The notes under the pieces: generated by a model
Database searches by the model: none
The model's input: the letters and a program-made list of their open reading frames with translations, nothing else
Told to the model about the DNA's origin: nothing
DNA from: Tuwongella immobilis
GTDB lineage: Bacteria > Planctomycetota > Planctomycetia > Gemmatales > Gemmataceae
Reading direction: 5' to 3'
DNA: 64,000 nucleotides
Assembly (NCBI RefSeq): GCF_901538355.1
Contig: NZ_LR593887.1
Coordinates: 6,486,920-6,550,919, forward strand
Made by a program: the position numbers and the translations under genes
Shown here: piece after piece, positions 18,681-28,580 of the stretch
How the letters are laid out: the number at the start of each line of letters is the position of its first letter
Numbering within the stretch: the stretch's first letter is position 1

Positions 18681-20102
18681 TTACTTCCCGGTGGCGGAAT
18701 CGGGCGATTGAGCGAGTCGGCGGAAGGCTTCGGTCAGAATCGGTGCGGTTTGCGGTCCCAGGCTGTTGACTTCGCCGTAGGGTGCTTTGGGCAATCCGAA
18801 GGTGAACGGTTTTTCGACATCCCATTGCCGTCGAGACAGAATGTAGCCCACTTCGTCGTTGGCCAAGCCGATGATCATCCGAAACTTACCCGTCATCTGC
18901 GGATAAATCGCGGGTTCCCGCTTGGCATCGGGGAAATCCGCACCCGGCGGCACCGGATCGGGCACTTGATCGATGACCAATTCGGGGTAAATTTCCCCCG
19001 GAATCAGCGCCACGTCCAGATCGCCCAGCCGCCAGAAACTCACTTCGGTCTGAATGCACACGGGCTTGGACAGATCCGTCCCTTTGGGCAATTCCTTGGC
19101 ATATGGATCGCCCGAATAGGCATAGTTATTCCGCTTCATCACCCCGAGTTGCCAGGCGAGCAAAAACAGTTTGTTTTCGACCGGCACAAACAGCGTTTGT
19201 TGGCGAATGTCGAACGGCGTCAGTCGGGCGGGCTTCGCCGTTTGCAGCGCTTTGTTGGCGACATCGGCCAGCAGTTCCCCGTAGCGAACCATCTTGGCTT
19301 CGCTGCCTTCTTTCAGCGGTTGCCCCGCAGCGTCGGTGATTTTGACGCGCATGGAGGTCATCAAACCGCCGACGGTGCCGGTCAGGTAAACCACCGGGCA
19401 TTTGTGCCGATCTTGAAGCTGCTTGACGGTGGTGGCGACATAATCGGCGGTGAGAAGCGTCGATTTGCTATCGATCGTTTCGGGGTGACAATTCCACTGC
19501 ACGATGATGCCAGCGGTTTTGCCGTTGTCCCCCTCGAAGCGAATCGCCACGAGTTCATCGTGTTTGATGAACGGCGGGCGGGTATCGGTCAGCAGTTCGG
19601 GAGCAGTCGCGGAGCCAATGGACGCCTCGACCGGGCGAAGATTGCCAGCGGCTTGCTTCAAGGCATCCACGACTTTCGATTCGATCATCGCGTTATATTC
19701 GGGATCGACGCCGCTGGTGTAGGGATTCGGTCCCCAGATGCCAACGGTATCCGGCCCGTTGTGGTTGTGCGTCGCCCCGACCATGATGGTGGCAAATTCT
19801 GGCAATTTCTTGCGAATGCTCTGCACCATGGGGTAGCTGATGCCCACCACATCGACGGAGGCCACGCCAATGGTCTGCGTGCCGTCGTGGAGGACGACGA
19901 CGCGGGCCATGATGGGGTCGAGCACACCGGTGGCGATGCGATTTTGGCCGAATCCAGCGATGTAGATGGGCTTTTTGCCGATCTTGGGGGTGACATCCAC
20001 CTCGGCAAATCCGACGCGCAGTTGCGGAGCCGCCTGAATCGGCCGCCCCTCGACGATGCAACTGCCAACCGTGAGCAGAATCAACCAGGAGAGGCGACGC
20101 AT
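18681..20102 (-). CDS. Secreted neutral/alkaline ceramidase-like hydrolase
   Basis: The protein is 473 aa with an N-terminal signal peptide (MRRLSWLILLTVGSCIVEGR, cleavage near PIQAAP). It opens with LRVGFAEVDVTPKIG, then AGFGQNR, VASVDVVGI and the metal-binding THNHNGPD (111-118), all hallmarks of the N-terminal domain of the neutral/alkaline non-lysosomal ceramidase family. Full ceramidases also have a C-terminal Ig-like domain; this protein is shorter and seems to lack it, as is common in planctomycete homologues, so sphingolipid cleavage is only one possibility and other amide or ester substrates are open. It starts 12 bp after dapB. Confidence 0.82.
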   Translation of the reverse strand: MRRLSWLILLTVGSCIVEGRPIQAAPQLRVGFAEVDVTPKIGKKPIYIAGFGQNRIATGVLDPIMARVVVLHDGTQTIGVASVDVVGISYPMVQSIRKKLPEFATIMVGATHNHNGPDTVGIWGPNPYTSGVDPEYNAMIESKVVDALKQAAGNLRPVEASIGSATAPELLTDTRPPFIKHDELVAIRFEGDNGKTAGIIVQWNCHPETIDSKSTLLTADYVATTVKQLQDRHKCPVVYLTGTVGGLMTSMRVKITDAAGQPLKEGSEAKMVRYGELLADVANKALQTAKPARLTPFDIRQQTLFVPVENKLFLLAWQLGVMKRNNYAYSGDPYAKELPKGTDLSKPVCIQTEVSFWRLGDLDVALIPGEIYPELVIDQVPDPVPPGADFPDAKREPAIYPQMTGKFRMIIGLANDEVGYILSRRQWDVEKPFTFGLPKAPYGEVNSLGPQTAPILTEAFRRLAQSPDSATGK

Positions 20103-20114
20103 GGAGTTCTCCGC

Positions 20115-20909
20115 TTACAGGCCCAGAACATCCCGCATGGAATACGTTCCTGCGGGTTTGCCAACCAGGAACTTGGCGGCAGCCAACGCCCCACGAGCGT
20201 AGCTATCCCGCGAGTGGCCTCGGTGGACCAGTTCGAGGGTTTCGCCCAGTGTGCTGAACAGGATTTCGTGTTCCCCGACATTATCTCCGACGCGGACGGC
20301 GTGCATTCCGATTTCCGTTCGGGGTCGTTCGCCGACTAATCCCTCGCGGCCGTGGCGCAGTTCGGTTTGCCCTTGGACTTCCTGGACAATGCGGGCGAAT
20401 TGCATGGCGGTGCCGCTGGGGGAATCCTTCTTGAAGCGGTGATGCTTCTCGATGATTTCCACGTCAAAGTCTTTGTCCTTCAGCATTTGCGCCGCTTGGC
20501 GTGTCAGCTCAAACAGCACGTTGACCGACAGACTCATATTCGGCGAAAAGAGGATAGCCGTCTGATGGGCCGCCGCCAGGATTTCCGCTTTTTGCTCGGC
20601 GGTAAAGCCGGTCGTGGCCACCACCAGCGGAATTTGTCGGGCCGTGACCACCTTCAGCAGTTCCATGGTTCCTTCGGGAACCGAAAAGTCCACAATCACA
20701 TCGGGCTTGGGTTCCAGCGGCAGTTCGTGGCTGAGCGGCACACCGATGGTACCGATCCCCGCGACTTCACCGGCGTCTTGGCCGATCTTGGGGTTGCTGG
20801 CCCCCTCCAGCGCGGCGACCACCCGGAAGGCGGCATCTTCGCGCGCCAATGTGACGAGCCGTTGACCCATGCGGCCCGCGGCTCCGTGAAAACCGATCGC
20901 AATCTTCAT
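20115..20909 (-). CDS. dapB: 4-hydroxy-tetrahydrodipicolinate reductase
   Basis: This 264-aa enzyme reduces hydroxy-tetrahydrodipicolinate with NAD(P)H in the lysine/diaminopimelate pathway. The Rossmann glycine motif GFHGAAGRMGQ is at residues 5-15, and the family signature HHRFKKDSPSGTAMQFA is near 156 (usual form HHxxKxDAPSGTA), carrying the catalytic His and Lys. The start at 20909 (MKIAIGFHG) is preferred over an upstream ATG. It lies between threonine synthase (45-bp gap) and the ceramidase-like gene (12-bp gap), so aspartate-family amino-acid synthesis genes are co-transcribed here. Confidence 0.95.
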   Translation of the reverse strand: MKIAIGFHGAAGRMGQRLVTLAREDAAFRVVAALEGASNPKIGQDAGEVAGIGTIGVPLSHELPLEPKPDVIVDFSVPEGTMELLKVVTARQIPLVVATTGFTAEQKAEILAAAHQTAILFSPNMSLSVNVLFELTRQAAQMLKDKDFDVEIIEKHHRFKKDSPSGTAMQFARIVQEVQGQTELRHGREGLVGERPRTEIGMHAVRVGDNVGEHEILFSTLGETLELVHRGHSRDSYARGALAAAKFLVGKPAGTYSMRDVLGL

Positions 20910-20954
20910 GTTGCAGAATCCTTGGTGTAGCTCGCCCGAATGCAAAATATCCGA

Positions 20955-22349
20955 TTATGCGTACAACTGAATTGCCTTGACGATTTCATCCAGATCGTTG
21001 GGCACCTGCACCGCTCGGTTGGCGAACGCCGCCCGTTTCACACCGCGCGAGCCAAGGACTTCCTCGAAGAGTTTGGCATCGCTGGAGTGGTACGCCACCG
21101 TTGCGGTGGGGTCTTTGAGTTGGTGCGCAGACAGAATGCACACCACCCGTTCATCGGGTTGGATGATGCCTTCTTGGAGCAACTTTTTGGCCCCGGCAAC
21201 GCTCGCACCAGACGCCGGTTCGCAGCCCAATCCACCGGCAGCGACTTTCGCCTTCGCGTCGAGAATGTCTTGATCGCTGGCTTCACGCACCAATCCGCCG
21301 CAGCGTTCCAGCGCTCGCAGCGCCTTGGGCAGATTCACCGGGCGATTGATTTCGATGGCGCTGGCCAGGGTCGAAGCCCGCAGATTGCCCGCATCCAACC
21401 CGCGATAGTAATTGTCAATCTTTTGCGAATCAAAGTGCCCGCCGTTCCAGCGCAGCCCTTGTCGCTCGTAAAGCTGATAGAACGTATCCGCTCCGGCCGC
21501 GTTGATGACGGCCAATCGGGGGACGCGATCGATGAGTCCGAGTTCCTTCAATTCGATGAACGCTTTGCCGAATGCGCTCACATTCCCCAGGTTGCCGCCG
21601 GGCACCACGATCCAATCGGGCACTTCCCAGCGCAGGGCTTCCAGCACGCGATACATGATGGTCTTTTGCCCTTCCAATCGGAAGGGGTTGATGCTGTTGA
21701 CCAGGTAGATTCCGAGTTGGCCGGCGACTTGCTGCACTCGGGCGAGGGCATCGTCGAAGTCGCCCGCGATTTGCAGCGTCAGCGCCCCGTGATCCAACGC
21801 TTGAGCAAGTTTCCCGTAGGAGATTTTGCCCGAACCGATGAAGATGATCGCCCGCATGAGCGTGGTGGCGGCACAGTAAATCGCCAGCGATGCACTGGTG
21901 TTGCCAGTGGAGGCACAGGCCGCGCGACGGGCACCCACCAACTGCGCATGGGTAAACGCGGCGGTCATGCCGTTGTCTTTGAAACTGCCCGAGGGATTCA
22001 TCCCCTCGTATTGCAGGAACAGATTCCCCGGTTTGACGCCAACATATTGCGCCACGGAATCCGATCGCTGACAAAGCGTCTGCCCTTCGCCGATGGTGAG
22101 AATCTGATTGGTAGGAGCGAACGGCAGCAATTCGTAGAATCGCCAGACGCCGGAGAAACTCAGCGGATTGGTGCGATCGGACCATTTGGCCTCGAACGCC
22201 TTCAGCGATCGGGGCGGTTGCAGCCGATCCCAATCGTAGGCGACATCGAGCAGGCTGTTGCACTTGGGACAGCGAAAATGCGTGGTCCCGCGATCCACGG
22301 TTGCGCCGCAGAGGGGATTGATACAACGAAGAAAAACGGCGTCAGTCAT
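20955..22349 (-). CDS. thrC: Threonine synthase
   Basis: The protein is 464 aa and PLP-dependent, converting O-phosphohomoserine to threonine. An N-terminal zinc ribbon has Cys 9, 14, 27 and 30 (CINPLC and CPKC). The PLP Lys is in [11 protein letters not shown] (about 120), and [12 protein letters not shown] and VVPGGNLGN provide phosphate-binding and cofactor loops. The start at 22349 (MTDAVFLRC) was chosen over an upstream ATG because it begins at the ribbon. It is 69 bp downstream of the last SGNH paralogue on the same strand and 45 bp upstream of dapB. Confidence 0.93.
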
Positions 22350-22418
22350 ACGCAAGCCATCCCGATTGCGAATGTCGGAGAGCGGACCCAACCGGGGGAC
22401 CGGTTCCCGACAATTCTA

Positions 22419-23645
22419 TCAATTCCTTGGCCAACCGCCTATTGTCCGACAGGCTTCCGCCAGCCGAATACTCACCGCCTCAGCCGCCGCCGGCAACAGA
22501 TGGTGCCCATCCAGATAGGCCGCATCCATGGGTTGCCAGTGCAGTGCATCCACAAACGGCATCGGAAATTCCCGGCGAATCGCCGCGATTTCGGCATCGG
22601 CTTGGCCCGCGAATGCGGATGGAGCCGCCGCTTGGAATCGAGGCGATTCCGGCATTCGGAACAGCACCACGGGAATCTGCAATTCCTGGCAGCGTTGCAA
22701 CAACCGATGCAAGGCCCGATCCGGCCCCGGCGATCGGCGAAAATCGGCCCAATTCGGCTGATAATCGGCAATGGCTTTCTGCGTGCGAGAATCGCGCTCC
22801 GCTTCCGGAATCGTCGCTTGGGGATAGGCATTCCAGCCGAACGCATCCACCCGCCAATGCCCATCCAGCCGCCCAGCATAGGGCAACCAATACGGAGCAA
22901 ATCGGCTCAGCACCGCGCCACGAACCGCCGCCATCGGCGCAAGTCGTTGCAGCCACCAGCGTTGCGCCACAGCTTGCGGATCGCCAAAATCATCGGCCAG
23001 TCGCTGCCGATCGGCGTAACTCAACCGCGCAATCGGCAGTTGCGCTTCCATCGGCGCGTCATTGTGCAGAAACGCGGGCAGAATCTCCAGCAAAATTCCC
23101 GACGGCCGCACGCCGGATTCCAACAGCCGCTCCAGCGTCAGCCATTGCTGCTGCGGCCCAGCCCCGGCGATGCCAAAATTGATCACCAGCGGATCCATCG
23201 GCGTGGTCATCATCGCCGTCGGGGAAAGCCCCATTTGACTGCGCGAACTGCCCAAAATCAGCCAAATGGGACAATGCGGATTCTGGCGATGCTGGTGCTG
23301 CAATCGTTCCAAGCGGACGCCGAATTCCGGGTCACGCAAGGCCGGGGCGTGCCATTCCAACAGCCAGAATCCCCACGCCACCCACAGCAGATAACCCGCC
23401 CCCGCGATGGTCAACAATCGGCGAGCCCGCGCTCGAAATCGGGATTGGCCGCGTGATCGGTCGCGTGATCGGCTTCGGATTCCCTCAGCAGTTGCGGTCG
23501 CGCAGGCAAGTGACGCCGCCGATGCCTCAGATGGTTCGGCCCCCAGATCGGCCCCTGGGTCGCCCACCGGTGCGGCCACAGGTGCCGTTCGTGAGCGTTC
23601 GTTGGCGCGACGATGGCCCCAGGAAAACAACCGAGTGAATTTCAT
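22419..23645 (-). CDS. SGNH-hydrolase-like membrane-anchored protein, fourth of four tandem paralogues
   Basis: The protein is 408 aa. A basic, Ala/Arg-rich cytoplasmic N-terminus is followed by one membrane helix (LLTIAGAGYLLWVAWGFWLL, about 77-96) and then the shared juxtamembrane motif LRDPEFGVRLERL. SGNH-like blocks: ILGSSRSQMGLS (block I Ser in GSSR), NFGIAGAGPQQQ (block III-like Asn), and a C-terminal D-x-x-H (YLDGHHLLPAAA). The start ATG at 23645 overlaps the upstream stop as ATGA, the same junction as between the other paralogues. Likely role: periplasmic transfer or removal of acyl groups with the MBOAT partner, as AlgJ/AlgX do with AlgI; the substrate is unknown. Confidence 0.75.
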   Translation of the reverse strand: MKFTRLFSWGHRRANERSRTAPVAAPVGDPGADLGAEPSEASAASLACATATAEGIRSRSRDRSRGQSRFRARARRLLTIAGAGYLLWVAWGFWLLEWHAPALRDPEFGVRLERLQHQHRQNPHCPIWLILGSSRSQMGLSPTAMMTTPMDPLVINFGIAGAGPQQQWLTLERLLESGVRPSGILLEILPAFLHNDAPMEAQLPIARLSYADRQRLADDFGDPQAVAQRWWLQRLAPMAAVRGAVLSRFAPYWLPYAGRLDGHWRVDAFGWNAYPQATIPEAERDSRTQKAIADYQPNWADFRRSPGPDRALHRLLQRCQELQIPVVLFRMPESPRFQAAAPSAFAGQADAEIAAIRREFPMPFVDALHWQPMDAAYLDGHHLLPAAAEAVSIRLAEACRTIGGWPRN

Positions 23646-24832
23646 GGCGATTTCCTGGGCAAACGCACGGCATCCGGCAGAATCTCCAGCATTCGCTCCG
23701 CCCAGATGCCGGTGAACTGCGCGGCGGCTTCGGGTGTGAGGTGGATCCCATCGGGCACCACATCGCCGGGCATCACCGTGCGAAAATCCTGACATTTCGC
23801 CCCGTAATCGCGTTCCCAAATCGCCAATTGCGCAGTGAATCGCTGCTCGGTTGCGGGGCTGGTCCACGCATGCACCAGCGCAGATTCGGGCAATTGCATC
23901 AGCCGAATCGGAATCTGATGCTCCTGACAAAGTGCGAAAATGGATTGCTGCGCGGTCATGGCCCGATCGCCGGGTTGCCAATCTTCGAGGATTCGGCGAT
24001 AGAATTTTTCGGCAATCGCGTGCTGTTTTTGCAGTTCCGCAGGCGATTGGACCGCTTTCGGACCCGGCACCCAACCGTAGGCATCCATCAGCCGCCAATT
24101 CGCATCGCGACGGCCGAGATTAGGCAACATGCTGGGGGCCATCAGCGTCATCAGATTCACCCGTTGATGGTACCAGGGCACCAATTTCATCGGTAATTCC
24201 AGGTCGGCGAGCTTCTGCGGATCGCTGAAATACCCCGGCAGCCACTCCAATTCGCGGGGACGCAGACGGAGCAAATCGATGCGGTGTTCTTCCTGCAATT
24301 CCGGGGATGCGCCAAAGAACGGGGACCACACCTCGGCCAGCACCGCAGCCGGGCGAATGCCATCTTCCAGCAAGCGGCGGAGCATCATCAACTGCATCAC
24401 CGGGCCTGAGCCGATCAGCGACGCATTCACGAACGCCGGCGGGACAATTCCCTGCTCGACACAGCGGCGCGAAAATGCGGAATCCCCTTCCAGCACGCCG
24501 GTGCGTAGCCCCATGCTCACTCGGGATGAACCGAGCAGCACGATCATGGGCCGTTCGGGAAATTGTCGCTGCATGCGCTGAATGACGGCCACTTTGCGAC
24601 CATATTCCGGATCGCGCCAACTGGGGCAGAGCGAATCAAACGCCAGCAGACTCAGTAGATGCGCCGTCAGCAGCAAAAGCGCCATCGTGCCCAATAGGGT
24701 GCGGGCGCGGCGGCGCAATCGGCGACAACTTCCAGTCGGCGGAGCGGCAGTTGCGGTCGATGGCTCCGGCAGCTCCGGCACCTCCGACGGAGTGGCAGCG
24801 GGGCGGATTCGCAAGCGGGAGAACAGATTCAT
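23642..24832 (-). CDS. SGNH-hydrolase-like membrane-anchored protein, third of four tandem paralogues
   Basis: The protein is 396 aa. The cytoplasmic leader (MNLFSRLRIRPAATPSEVPE) contains a Pro/Ala/Thr-rich stretch, then one helix (TLLGTMALLLLTAHLLSLLA, about 46-65) and the motif WRDPEYGRKVAVIQRM. Catalytic-type blocks: LLGSSRVSMGLR, FVNASLIGSGPVMQ (where the sister proteins have NFGI), the acidic segment RRLLEDGIRPAAVLAEV, and C-terminal VPDGIHLTPEAAA (D-x-x-H). NAS in place of NFG is the clearest deviation in the set and may change specificity. It is joined to both neighbours by 4-bp ATGA overlaps. Confidence 0.75.
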   Translation of the reverse strand: MNLFSRLRIRPAATPSEVPELPEPSTATAAPPTGSCRRLRRRARTLLGTMALLLLTAHLLSLLAFDSLCPSWRDPEYGRKVAVIQRMQRQFPERPMIVLLGSSRVSMGLRTGVLEGDSAFSRRCVEQGIVPPAFVNASLIGSGPVMQLMMLRRLLEDGIRPAAVLAEVWSPFFGASPELQEEHRIDLLRLRPRELEWLPGYFSDPQKLADLELPMKLVPWYHQRVNLMTLMAPSMLPNLGRRDANWRLMDAYGWVPGPKAVQSPAELQKQHAIAEKFYRRILEDWQPGDRAMTAQQSIFALCQEHQIPIRLMQLPESALVHAWTSPATEQRFTAQLAIWERDYGAKCQDFRTVMPGDVVPDGIHLTPEAAAQFTGIWAERMLEILPDAVRLPRKSP

Positions 24833-25899
24833 CGGTGCATCTCCGCCAAGAGTGTTCGGATCATCGGCGTCAATCGTTGGGAAAACGCATCGGCTCCGGC
24901 TTCGGTCAGATGATGCGAATCGCTGAACATCGCATCCGGCAACCACTCGCGGGCATCCACAAACGACACACTGTGCGTTTGCGACAATTGCTGCATCTTC
25001 TGAGCGAATTCCGTCAACGCATCGGGTTGATACCAGCTTCGGAAATCGCGGCCTTCGGGCATGGCCACGAGCATCGGTTTCATCCCCGCCGCCTGCAATC
25101 GCGCCAGCGTCTCGTCCAGAAAGACCAACATGCGATCATCCAATTCCCGCGATCGACAGACTTCGCCGTACATTTTCTGAGCATTTCGCACACCGTGCTG
25201 ATACTGCTGCGGAGTCAAATCGCGGAATACCGACCGCACCCAACCATGGGCATCGGTGTACGGCGTCATATCCGTGGGATCGCAGGCCGTCTGCATCGCC
25301 GGGGCCAAATAGCCGAGCAACGGCGTGCGATAGTCGTATGTCGGCATCCCCTGCCCCAGTTGCGATGCGCGATGGGAGATGATCCCGCGTTGTTCCAATT
25401 CGCGGGTTTCTTCGGCAGACAAGCGATGCGGCAACAGCCACGCCGACTCAAATGCCCCGTTTCTACCGAACCGATCCATCACTTGAACTGGTGCCAGATA
25501 GAACGGCATCATCACTTCGAGAATCACGACATCGGCGCGAACATCTTGCCGAAGCAGTCGGCGGGTGATGAGGTTCTGCATCACCGGCCCGGCAGCGGGA
25601 ATCCCGAAATTGAAGGTCCGCACCGGCTGGCCCAGTTCGGAGCGCAGGCGGGATTCCGTCTGCGCAGCATTCCAGCCGATGAGCAATCGCGAAGTGCCGA
25701 TGCCGAGAATCCGTCGCGTTTGCGGATCGCGATCTTTCGCGTACCCGGAGGCACGAAAGATGCCCAGTTTTCGGGCAAATGGTGGATCTTCGACGATCAA
25801 CCAATCGCCGCGAATCATCGCCACCAGCCCCAATTGCACGGCGGCGAAACTCAGCATGCCCCACAGCAGACAGCGCCCTGCGGTCCGAGTTCGAGTCAT
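24829..25899 (-). CDS. SGNH-hydrolase-like membrane-anchored protein, second of four tandem paralogues
   Basis: The protein is 356 aa, the shortest of the set, with almost no cytoplasmic leader before its helix (LLWGMLSFAAVQLGLVAMI, about 10-29). Shared motifs are VEDPPFARKLGIF, GIGTSRLLIGW (block I, GTSR), FNFGIPAAGPVMQN, VVILEVMMPFYLAP, and C-terminal FSDSHHLTEAGADAF (D-x-x-H). ATG 25899 was taken because it overlaps the upstream stop by four bases; the longer in-frame extension overlaps the preceding gene and lacks its coding character. Confidence 0.75.
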   Translation of the reverse strand: MTRTRTAGRCLLWGMLSFAAVQLGLVAMIRGDWLIVEDPPFARKLGIFRASGYAKDRDPQTRRILGIGTSRLLIGWNAAQTESRLRSELGQPVRTFNFGIPAAGPVMQNLITRRLLRQDVRADVVILEVMMPFYLAPVQVMDRFGRNGAFESAWLLPHRLSAEETRELEQRGIISHRASQLGQGMPTYDYRTPLLGYLAPAMQTACDPTDMTPYTDAHGWVRSVFRDLTPQQYQHGVRNAQKMYGEVCRSRELDDRMLVFLDETLARLQAAGMKPMLVAMPEGRDFRSWYQPDALTEFAQKMQQLSQTHSVSFVDAREWLPDAMFSDSHHLTEAGADAFSQRLTPMIRTLLAEMHR

Positions 25900-27119
25900 C
25901 GCGGTGCGTCCTCCGCGGGACGATCCGCGCGAATCGCCTGAATCGCCGGGGCGATCACCTCGCGGCCCAACTGCTGGCTGTAGCGTTTGGCACCCTCTCG
26001 ATTGAGATGATGCGAATCCGTGAACGATTCCTCCGCGCACCACTCCCGAGCATAGACCAGCGATGCGCCGCAATCCTCTTGTAAATGCCGAAAATACGCC
26101 TGCAAATTCGCTTCGGTTTGCGGCGGATAGAACGTGCGGAAGATCGGCCCCTCGGGCATCATCACCAGCTTCAGCGGAATGGATTGCTCGCGGCAAAGCG
26201 ACACGATGCGTTCGAGCGCTTCCGCCGCTGGCCCGCCCGGACGATAATTCGCCAGCACCGCTTCGTAATCATTTTTCGCGCGTTTCAGGGCAATTTCGCG
26301 ATCATTGAATCGCGGATTCTGGAACAACACGGGCGACCAGCCGGCAGCATCCCCGCCCCGCCCCGCATCCAGCCGAACGGAGAACGGCAGCCAGCCCGGC
26401 ACCAATCGCCCCACCACCGGAAACCGCAGCGCATACACCGGATTGACCACCGTGCCCCACCATTCCGCCCGTTGTTCTGGCACACACAATCCGTAGTGCA
26501 AACCGAATTCCCATTCGGAATACTGCAAGCGATTGGGCGTGGTGAAATGCTTTTCCAGCGGCCCGCCTGGTGGCGGATCGGCGGCCAGCATCGACGGCAG
26601 AATTTCGACCAGCAGCAAATCCGGCTTCACGCCCTCGGCCAGCATGCGTTGCAGATACAGCAGATGCGTGATCGGCCCCGTCGCGGGAATGCCGAAATTG
26701 AACACGTTGACCGAATGCCCCAGCGATTGCCGCAATTGCTGCTCGATGGTCAGCCCGTCCAGCCCCATGGCGGTGCGACTGGTGCCCAGCATGACGACCA
26801 TGGGAATATGCGGGGAGACACTGGGGGGCAGATCGGGCGTGGCCGCATCCCGTTGCAGCGTTTCGTGATGCGTGCGCAACTTGCGGACTTTGTCGGCGTA
26901 GAACGGATCGCGGAACCGCAGATCCACCAGCGCGGCAATCGACCACATCGCTTGAATCAGCAGAAACACCAGCCCCATCAGCAGCAGCTTGCGCTTGGCC
27001 CGCTGCGCATGCGTGCGGATTCTGCGCGGCGAAATCGGTGTCGATTCACTTCCCGGAATCGCCGCTGGAAGCATCTGCGCAGACCGTCGAACGATTCCAC
27101 CCAACCGAGAGAATGCCAT
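25896..27119 (-). CDS. SGNH-hydrolase-like membrane-anchored protein, first of four tandem paralogues
   Basis: The protein is 407 aa. A basic cytoplasmic leader is followed by a helix (KLLLMGLVFLLIQAMWSIAA, about 43-62) and then FRDPFYADKVRKLRT. Motifs: VMLGTSRTAMGLDG (block I), VFNFGIPATGPITH, LLLVEILPSMLAAD, and C-terminal FTDSHHLNREGAKRY (D-x-x-H). It begins 21 bp after the MBOAT stop, so it is the gene most closely linked to the acyltransferase. It ends in ATGA with the next paralogue. Confidence 0.77.
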   Translation of the reverse strand: MAFSRLGGIVRRSAQMLPAAIPGSESTPISPRRIRTHAQRAKRKLLLMGLVFLLIQAMWSIAALVDLRFRDPFYADKVRKLRTHHETLQRDAATPDLPPSVSPHIPMVVMLGTSRTAMGLDGLTIEQQLRQSLGHSVNVFNFGIPATGPITHLLYLQRMLAEGVKPDLLLVEILPSMLAADPPPGGPLEKHFTTPNRLQYSEWEFGLHYGLCVPEQRAEWWGTVVNPVYALRFPVVGRLVPGWLPFSVRLDAGRGGDAAGWSPVLFQNPRFNDREIALKRAKNDYEAVLANYRPGGPAAEALERIVSLCREQSIPLKLVMMPEGPIFRTFYPPQTEANLQAYFRHLQEDCGASLVYAREWCAEESFTDSHHLNREGAKRYSQQLGREVIAPAIQAIRADRPAEDAPR

Positions 27120-27140
27120 GGTGCGTGCCTCCGGGATGGA

Positions 27141-28580
27141 TCAGAAATCGAAGTAAATGAACGCCTTCCCGGCCTCGGGTGCGAGCATCAGGGCGACCGT
27201 CAGCGCGGTGGCATACCCCACCCCGACCATCGGTTCGGGCAGCTTCAGGCTCCAGCGCTTCCAGATGCCGGTTGAGCCGAGATAATGGCAGACGGCCATC
27301 AGCGCGACCGTGTACCACAGGCCGCGATTCGGGAGATCAAGCGATCGCCCCGGCGCGAAGGTGAACATCCGTTCGAGCATGGTCAGCGACACGCTCAAAC
27401 TCTTCTGGAAGAAGATCCAACACATCATGACGCTGAAAAAGGTCAGGCCCATGCGGAAGGCTTTGCCGGGCAGCGTTTCCAGGGCAGCAACAATTTTCGG
27501 ACGATGCTTGGCCCACGCCGCGAAGATGCGATGCACCACCAGCATGCCGCCGTGCAGTGCGCCCCAAATCACGAAGCTCCATTGTGCCCCGTGCCACAAT
27601 CCGCCCAACAACATGGTCAGCATCAGATTTCGGTAAATGAACCAGGTGCCGCCACGATTGCCGCCCAGTCCGATGTAGACATAATCGCGCAGCCAGCTCG
27701 AAAGCGAAATATGCCACCGCCGCCAGAATTCGCCGACATTCTTCGACAGATACGGCATGTTGAAATTCATGGTCAGCTTGTAACCCAGCAGATGCGCCGA
27801 GCCGATGGCCATATCCGTGTAGCCGGAAAAGTCGCAATAAATGCGAATGGCAAAGGCAAACACGCCGAGCCAAATGGCGCCGGTGGAGTAACTTGCGGGA
27901 TCGGTGAAAATCGGATCGGAATAGAGCGCCATGCGGTCAGCAATGGCGAGCTTCTTGAACAACCCCATCAGAAAGAATTCGACACCCACCTGCGCCCGCA
28001 GCCAACTCCAGCGCTTGGGACGATGCGTTTGAGGCAGAAAATCGCCGCCGCGCACAATCGGCCCGGCCACCAGGTGCGGAAAGAACAGGATGAACAGCAT
28101 GAAATTGGGCAAACTGCGTTCCGCGCGAATCTTGCGGCGGTAGACATCCACGCAGTAGCTAATCGCTTCGAAGGTGTAGAAGGAAATCCCGAACGGAACG
28201 ATGATATCCCGAATCAAGAAATTTCGATCCAAGAAATCCTTGCCAGCAAAGCCGAGCGAATCGAGCGAACGACCCAATTCCTCGACGAAGAAGTTCATGT
28301 ATTTGAAGTAGAGCAGAATGCCGAGATTGACCGTGAGATTCGCTCCCAGCAGCAATCGCCGGTGCCAATCTTTCTTGGCGGCGTCGAGTCCTCGGGCCAG
28401 CCAATAGTCCAGAAAGGTCGTGCTGGCGACCAGGAGTGCGAGTTCGGCGCTCCAGACATAATAAAAGTAGTACGACGCGACGAGCAAAATCCAGACGCGG
28501 ACCTTCTGCCAGGGAACCGCCCAGTACACGCTGAAGACGATCAGGAAAAACGCGAGATAGGCCAACGAATGAAAGAACAT
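27141..28580 (-). CDS. MBOAT-family membrane O-acyltransferase (AlgI-like)
   Basis: This 479-aa polytopic protein has AlgI/DltB-like MBOAT features: N-terminal FFHSLAYLAFFLIVFSVYWA, the segment PFGISFYTFEAISYCVDVYR, YCDFSGYTDMAIGSAHLLG, EFWRRWHISLSSWLRDYVYI and the catalytic His in GGLWHGAQWSFVIWGALHG. In alginate systems AlgI passes acetyl groups across the membrane to periplasmic SGNH enzymes (AlgJ/X/F), and in the Dlt system DltB works with DltD. Here the four genes directly downstream encode SGNH-like proteins, so the same division of labour is likely for a surface glycan. It is the first gene of a nine-gene minus-strand run. Confidence 0.9.
   Translation of the reverse strand: MFFHSLAYLAFFLIVFSVYWAVPWQKVRVWILLVASYYFYYVWSAELALLVASTTFLDYWLARGLDAAKKDWHRRLLLGANLTVNLGILLYFKYMNFFVEELGRSLDSLGFAGKDFLDRNFLIRDIIVPFGISFYTFEAISYCVDVYRRKIRAERSLPNFMLFILFFPHLVAGPIVRGGDFLPQTHRPKRWSWLRAQVGVEFFLMGLFKKLAIADRMALYSDPIFTDPASYSTGAIWLGVFAFAIRIYCDFSGYTDMAIGSAHLLGYKLTMNFNMPYLSKNVGEFWRRWHISLSSWLRDYVYIGLGGNRGGTWFIYRNLMLTMLLGGLWHGAQWSFVIWGALHGGMLVVHRIFAAWAKHRPKIVAALETLPGKAFRMGLTFFSVMMCWIFFQKSLSVSLTMLERMFTFAPGRSLDLPNRGLWYTVALMAVCHYLGSTGIWKRWSLKLPEPMVGVGYATALTVALMLAPEAGKAFIYFDF

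What the first reader, a model, noticed from the sequence alone, without database searches (positions are those of the whole stretch)
22419..28580. MBOAT acyltransferase followed by four tandem SGNH-like paralogues
One AlgI-like gene is followed 21 bp later by four related membrane-anchored proteins joined by ATGA overlaps. All four keep a G-S/T-S-R block, a glycine-rich central block and a C-terminal D-x-x-H, with a shared juxtamembrane D-P motif. Known AlgI/DltB-type systems use one to three SGNH partners; four diverged copies suggest several acyl acceptor positions, or a relay, on a planctomycete surface glycan.
Basis: partly seen in the sequence, partly recalled or inferred. Interest (0 to 1): 0.72.

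Follow-up and report, generated by a model that had tools for sequence, protein, structure and literature searches.

The report
One acyl donor, four ordered acyltransferases
A planctomycete carries one membrane enzyme that probably loads acyl groups onto its own tail, followed by four related surface transferases that probably pass them to different sites of an unknown envelope polymer; the same ordered set of up to five transferases recurs across its family, which makes it an unusually expanded version of a known bacterial surface-decoration machine.

Summary
On the minus strand an MBOAT gene (27141-28580) is followed 21 nt later by four paralogous, membrane-anchored SGNH-type genes joined by three ATGA overlaps. 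All four keep the Ser/Asp/His triad. AlphaFold models of two (pLDDT 91) match TesA and DltD. The MBOAT ends in FIYFDF, the FxYxxF acyl-shuttle tail shown in PatA to carry the acyl group as acyl-tyrosine. So this is an MBOAT-SGNH envelope O-acyltransferase, working like PatA/PatB or DltB/DltX/DltD, with partners of the uncharacterised DUF1574 group rather than AlgJ/AlgX or DltD. The number of partners is unusual, and the array is old. In genomes of the same family (Gemmataceae), the MBOAT is followed by up to five SGNH genes falling into four orthologous classes in the invariant order A-B-C-D(-D); 15 of 15 arrays from loci not used for the class models are in order. High-scoring homologues in other sampled families of the class are single. 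Natural arrays lacking A, B or D argue against an obligate serial relay and favour parallel transferases sharing one donor. The acceptor polymer and acyl group are unknown. Verdict: a new, lineage-specific variant of a known kind; function untested.

The parts
27141..28580 (-). MBOAT O-acyltransferase (479 aa, P0005); conserved His330 in GGLWHG
   Evidence: PF03062 102 bits; profile matches DltB 6bug at 5.4e-41 with WHG aligned to WHG; 52-59% identical orthologues
27144..27161 (-). C-terminal FIYFDF acyl-shuttle motif (FxYxxF), Tyr476
   Evidence: sequence; 64 of 65 distinct relatives over 400 bits end in FxYxxF; function of the motif shown for PatA (PMC12148441)
25896..27119 (-). SGNH-A (407 aa), class A; N-terminal helix 31-65, D71-P72, Ser114, Asp368, His371
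   Evidence: DUF1574 34.5 bits; class A 385 against 260 bits; tree 95/93; model pLDDT 91.0
24829..25899 (-). SGNH-B (356 aa), class B by position and tree (weak); Ser70, Asp327, His330
   Evidence: DUF1574 32.3 bits; class B 245 against A 240 bits; with class B at 91/70, class A not rejected, p-AU 0.249
23642..24832 (-). SGNH-C (396 aa), class C; N-terminal helix 35-68, Ser103, Asp361, His364
   Evidence: class C 274 against 211 bits; tree 98/98; model pLDDT 91.6; DUF1574 only 10.5 bits
22419..23645 (-). SGNH-D (408 aa), class D (weak in tree); Ser134, Asp379, His382
   Evidence: DUF1574 31.7 bits; class D 289 against 240 bits; tree 52/35
23642..23645 (-). ATGA overlap C/D
   Evidence: coordinates
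24829..24832 (-). ATGA overlap B/C
   Evidence: coordinates
25896..25899 (-). ATGA overlap A/B
   Evidence: coordinates

Best explanation
A one-donor, many-transferase MBOAT-SGNH envelope O-acylation system. The MBOAT takes an acyl group from a cytoplasmic donor (probably acetyl- or another acyl-CoA) and, using His330, places it on Tyr476 of its own extracytoplasmic FIYFDF tail. That acyl-tyrosine tail is offered in turn to four membrane-anchored, DltD-shaped SGNH enzymes. Each takes the acyl group on its catalytic Ser and transfers it, in parallel with the others, to its own acceptor site (different sugars, hydroxyls or polymers) outside the cytoplasm. Shown here: gene set, conserved active-site residues, SGNH/DltD-like predicted fold of copies A and C, the shuttle motif, and ancient co-linear conservation. 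Inferred: acyl-tyrosine chemistry (from PatA and DltX), parallel action, and different acceptors. Unknown: which polymer and which acyl group.
For: MBOAT: PF03062 102 bits; DltB match with the WHG motif aligned; FxYxxF tail in 64 of 65 relatives; the tail tyrosine is the acetyl carrier in PatA and the authors propose the mechanism for MBOAT-SGNH systems in general (PMC12148441). SGNH: Ser kept in 171, Asp in 169 and His in 170 of 173 distinct relatives, with no clear loss of the triad in any class. Folds: TesA Z 13.1-14.0 over about 166 residues and DltD Z 12.8-13.5 over 248-274 residues; Foldseek top hits are DltD. Ordered classes: (A+B) split from (C+D) at 100/100; 15 of 15 arrays and 85 of 85 class pairs in order, in loci not used for the class models. 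Parallel rather than serial: ACD in G007, G011, G062, CD in G015, ABC in G074/L072, each still beside an MBOAT. The cap region differs most between classes (within/between identity ratio 1.63).
Against: No biochemistry and no model coordinates (triad geometry was not measured; only fold matches and invariant residues). The juxtamembrane helix is almost as class-specific as the cap (ratio 1.58), so acceptor specialisation is not singled out. No conserved neighbour gene points to an acceptor. Clearly classed multi-copy arrays keep C, so C could be an obligate link.
Confidence: 0.58

Rival explanations
1. Serial relay: the acyl group passes from the MBOAT to one SGNH and on to the next, only the last acylating the polymer, as proposed for AlgI-AlgJ-AlgX and WssH-WssI-WssF.
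For: Relay models are published for alginate (PMC4148444) and cellulose (PMC10302187). Fixed gene order is compatible with an ordered chain.
Against: Arrays with A, B or D missing exist in genomes 95-98% complete (G007, G011, G015, G074), and single-copy systems are common. Alginate and cellulose use AlgX-type SGNHs, a different group.
Confidence: 0.15
2. Split roles: one or some copies transfer, others remove acyl groups (esterases) or edit the pattern.
For: Same fold and triad serve esterases and transferases (TesA, sialate O-acetylesterase and acetylxylan esterase matches).
Against: All four are membrane-anchored, share the juxtamembrane D-P and lie behind one MBOAT; a single copy of this family pairs with an MBOAT in many genomes, which fits a transferase role.
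Confidence: 0.13
3. Redundant copies kept for dosage or drifting after duplication.
For: Class D is duplicated again in several genomes (D, D'), showing ongoing duplication.
Against: The four classes are shared by different genera, keep their order and their catalytic residues, and share under 40% identity in most regions.
Confidence: 0.08
4. The acceptor is not a glycan: the system acylates a lipid, a cell-wall protein or a small molecule.
For: No conserved glycan locus beside the arrays; genes for conventional peptidoglycan are mostly missing in Tuwongella/Gemmataceae (PMC8567305).
Against: Characterised bacterial MBOAT-SGNH systems act on envelope polymers (PMC12148441); an NDP-sugar gene lies near the array of L086.
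Confidence: 0.06

Closest known systems
PatA/PatB peptidoglycan O-acetyltransferase (Gram-negative bacteria)
   Same: MBOAT with its own C-terminal FxYxxF shuttle tail and a separate membrane-anchored SGNH with Ser/Asp/His triad
   Different: One SGNH partner of the PatB (DUF459) family with wing hairpins; acceptor peptidoglycan, for which Gemmataceae mostly lack the genes
DltB/DltX/DltD teichoic-acid D-alanylation
   Same: Closest solved full-length shape of the SGNH partners is DltD; MBOAT closest to DltB in the PDB
   Different: No DltD-family hit in the genome, no DltA over its cut-off, tail motif fused to the MBOAT rather than on DltX, no teichoic acid expected in this Gram-negative bacterium
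AlgI/AlgJ/AlgX alginate and WssH/WssI/WssF cellulose O-acetylation
   Same: One MBOAT with more than one SGNH partner
   Different: Two SGNH partners of the AlgX type with circularly permuted catalytic residues; here up to five non-permuted DUF1574-like partners in one co-linear array
DUF1574 (PF07611)
   Same: Three of the four proteins pass its cut-off
   Different: No member had a known activity or structure in the 2022 review (PMC9487903); copy C does not pass the cut-off

Membership tests
Bacterial MBOAT-SGNH acyltransferase system | MBOAT domain with conserved His | tested here: met
   PF03062 102 bits; WHG aligned with DltB
Bacterial MBOAT-SGNH acyltransferase system | C-terminal FxYxxF shuttle motif on the MBOAT | tested here: met
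   FIYFDF; 64 of 65 relatives
Bacterial MBOAT-SGNH acyltransferase system | adjacent membrane-anchored SGNH with Ser/Asp/His triad | tested here: met
   residues conserved; N-terminal helix and SGNH fold in models of A and C
Bacterial MBOAT-SGNH acyltransferase system | acyl transfer to an envelope polymer | not testable with these tools
   needs biochemistry
DUF1574 (PF07611) | curated Pfam cut-off 29.1 bits | tested here: inconclusive
   A 34.5, B 32.3, D 31.7 pass; C 10.5 does not
DltD (PF04914) | sequence match to the DltD model | tested here: not met
   no match in the genome at E up to 1; none
DltD (PF04914) | DltD-like overall fold | tested here: met
   Z 12.8-13.5 over 248-274 residues, rmsd 4.6-5.5
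AlgX/AlgJ (PF16822) | sequence match to ALGX model and permuted order of catalytic residues | tested here: not met
   no PF16822 hit; Ser precedes DxxH, as in unpermuted SGNH proteins; contrast L150:8430-9683, which does match
DltB (TIGR04091) | equivalog cut-off 375 bits | tested here: not met
   153.2 bits
PatB (DUF459) | sequence match to a PatB-family Pfam model | tested here: not met
   no such hit; the PatB structure 7tlv appears at Z 10.9 for copy C

The most novel reading that the evidence does not exclude
A single MBOAT acts as a hub on which four or five different SGNH transferases assemble in a defined order (for example as a hetero-oligomer) and write a position-specific acylation pattern on one Gemmataceae-specific envelope polymer that stands in for the largely missing peptidoglycan.
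Probability: 0.12. Interest if true: 0.78.

Novelty: new variant of a known kind. Interest (0 to 1): 0.5.

Why it matters
The characterised MBOAT-SGNH systems read here have one or two SGNH partners. In this one a single donor enzyme is followed by four or five ancient, ordered, catalytically intact ones. If they act in parallel, this is a natural test of how one acyl-tyrosine tail serves several transferases and of what decides the acylated position. It also suggests a concrete role for DUF1574, a family without known activity, and gives a handle on the poorly known Gemmataceae envelope, where conventional peptidoglycan genes are mostly missing.

Tried and rejected
The search for related loci with SGNH-A alone on genome contigs: no relatives; solved by using the MBOAT alignment. 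PDB sequence search with the SGNH profile: only weak hits to TesA, E about 0.4. Search for a conserved acceptor locus beside the arrays: nothing beyond the MBOAT and SGNH genes; the one gene found in five loci is an AIR-synthase-like gene on the other strand. Literature on Gemmata/Tuwongella MBOAT-SGNH or on tandem SGNH partners: none found in the open library. Placing copies B and D firmly in classes by tree: long branches, support low. Localising class-specific change to the cap alone: the juxtamembrane helix is nearly as class-specific. Measuring triad distances: model coordinates are not given by the tools. Rfam scan of the window: no match. Promoter/terminator scan: no more than chance. 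First class-wide survey failed, repeated smaller.

Full report
What is there. On the minus strand an MBOAT gene (27141-28580) is followed after 21 nt by four genes, 25896-27119, 24829-25899, 23642-24832 and 22419-23645, called A to D here, each overlapping the next by ATGA. The genome (6,690,754 bases, one contig) has no other copy of this SGNH group. It has one other MBOAT, whose neighbour is an AlgX-type protein (PF16822, 70.5 bits). So the organism keeps a canonical AlgI/AlgX-like pair and, separately, this system.

What the proteins are. The MBOAT passes PF03062, scores under the DltB equivalog cut-off (153 against 375), and its family profile matches DltB structures at 5e-41 with the WHG motif aligned. 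It ends in FIYFDF. In PatA the tyrosine of this FxYxxF tail is auto-acetylated and PatB takes the acetyl from it; the authors extend the model to MBOAT-SGNH systems with the tail on the MBOAT (PMC12148441). Of 65 distinct MBOAT relatives over 400 bits, 64 end in FxYxxF. A, B and D pass the DUF1574 cut-off, C does not. DUF1574 is an SGNH-clan family with no known activity or structure (PMC9487903). In 71 aligned relatives the only invariant columns are G112, S114, E172, D368 and H371 of A; in 173, Ser is kept in 171, Asp in 169 and His in 170.

Structure. Models of C and A built on 71-row alignments have mean pLDDT 91.6 and 91.0: an N-terminal helix of about 34 residues, the D-P break, a second helix, then an alpha/beta fold with Ser after the first strand and DxxH after the last. 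Foldseek's best hits are DltD. VIA-align gives TesA Z 13.1-14.0 over about 166 residues (rmsd 2.2-2.7) and DltD Z 12.8-13.5 over 248-274 residues (rmsd 4.6-5.5), which are tied within the tool's error. So the SGNH fold is well supported; the DltD likeness lies in overall size and topology. No DltD-family gene is in the genome and no DltA over its cut-off. Triad distances could not be measured.

Conservation. Of 41 relatives 21 had the SGNH group; of 95 genomes of the same family 61, and of the 66 good ones 50. Named relatives include Gemmataceae, Gemmata, Fimbriiglobus and Limnoglobus. The group follows the MBOAT in 1 to 5 copies: five in L070, L071 and L074, four in L079, L080 and L086; in the class-wide sample five in G048 and G050, four in G000, G049, G051, G060 and G105, three in several others (grouped by position). 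In that sample, copies over 250 bits outside the family (f1) were single in their neighbourhood. So long arrays look like an innovation of this family, within the sampled genomes.

Order. The tree of named loci puts copies into positional classes: B (100/99), C (100/99), D (100/93), with A less resolved. Class models built from these were applied to other genomes: in 15 of 15 arrays with at least two clear calls the order is A-B-C-D(-D), 85 of 85 pairs, usually by margins of 100 bits or more. Several of these genomes share a genus, so they are not 15 independent events. Arrays with unclear classes (for example G001 and G006, L050 and L054) were not counted. The window's copies fall in the same order: A 385 against 260 bits, C 274 against 211, D 289 against 240, and B only 245 against 240. 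In a 28-row tree A+B and C+D separate at 100/100; A joins class A at 95/93, C joins C at 98/98, B joins B at 91/70 (class A not rejected, p-AU 0.249), D joins D at 52/35. The window's array is therefore best read as a diverged member of an old A-B-C-D tetrad; for B and D this rests partly on position.

How it probably works. The chemistry (acyl donor, MBOAT His, tail Tyr, SGNH Ser, polymer) follows from the motif set and published work on PatA/PatB. Between parallel and serial action, natural gaps are the best evidence: A-C-D in G007, G011 and G062, C-D in G015 and A-B-C in G074, all beside an MBOAT. A chain in which every link is needed could not lose A, B or D so freely. C is present in the multi-copy arrays with clear classes, so a special role for C is possible. 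The cap between strands 3 and 4 is the least alike between classes (22% against 36% within), but the juxtamembrane helix has nearly the same ratio, so acceptor specialisation is plausible, not shown. The acceptor is open: no neighbouring gene is conserved, and most conventional peptidoglycan genes are missing in this group (PMC8567305), which speaks against PatB's acceptor.

Comparison and verdict. Alginate and cellulose acetylation use one MBOAT with two SGNH proteins and are modelled as relays (PMC4148444, PMC10302187); PatA/PatB uses one. No paper found describes four or five, but the library holds open-access papers only. The parts are of known kinds; the ordered expansion and the DUF1574-like partners are the new element.

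Noticed in passing
L150:8430-11113 (G000:C1, about 1.077-1.080 Mb): Second MBOAT of the genome, ending FIYFRF, overlapping an AlgX-type SGNH gene and lying next to DUF58 and MoxR-type AAA genes.
   Followed up: partly
window 18681-20102 (-): Protein with a weak match (under cut-off) to neutral/alkaline ceramidase, next to dapB (20115-20945) and a threonine-synthase-like PALP gene (20955-22391) that starts 27 nt after SGNH-D on the same strand.
   Followed up: no
L086 (contig JAIXLE010000134.1): MAG titled Bacteroidales carries the full planctomycete A-B-C-D array and matches contig G019:C204 (same length, 75,464) of the window's family; the name of the record is probably wrong.
   Followed up: partly
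L105:6940-8634: The only MBOAT of 65 relatives without the FxYxxF tail; its reading frame diverges before the end, perhaps a frameshift or assembly error.
   Followed up: no
L152, L154, L155, L156, L157, L165: Class D is duplicated once or twice more at the end of the array, so the array seems to grow at its 3' end.
   Followed up: partly
alignment A3, column of E172 of SGNH-A: A glutamate after the third strand is invariant in 71 relatives and kept in 161 of 173; its role is unknown and it is not part of the usual triad.
   Followed up: no
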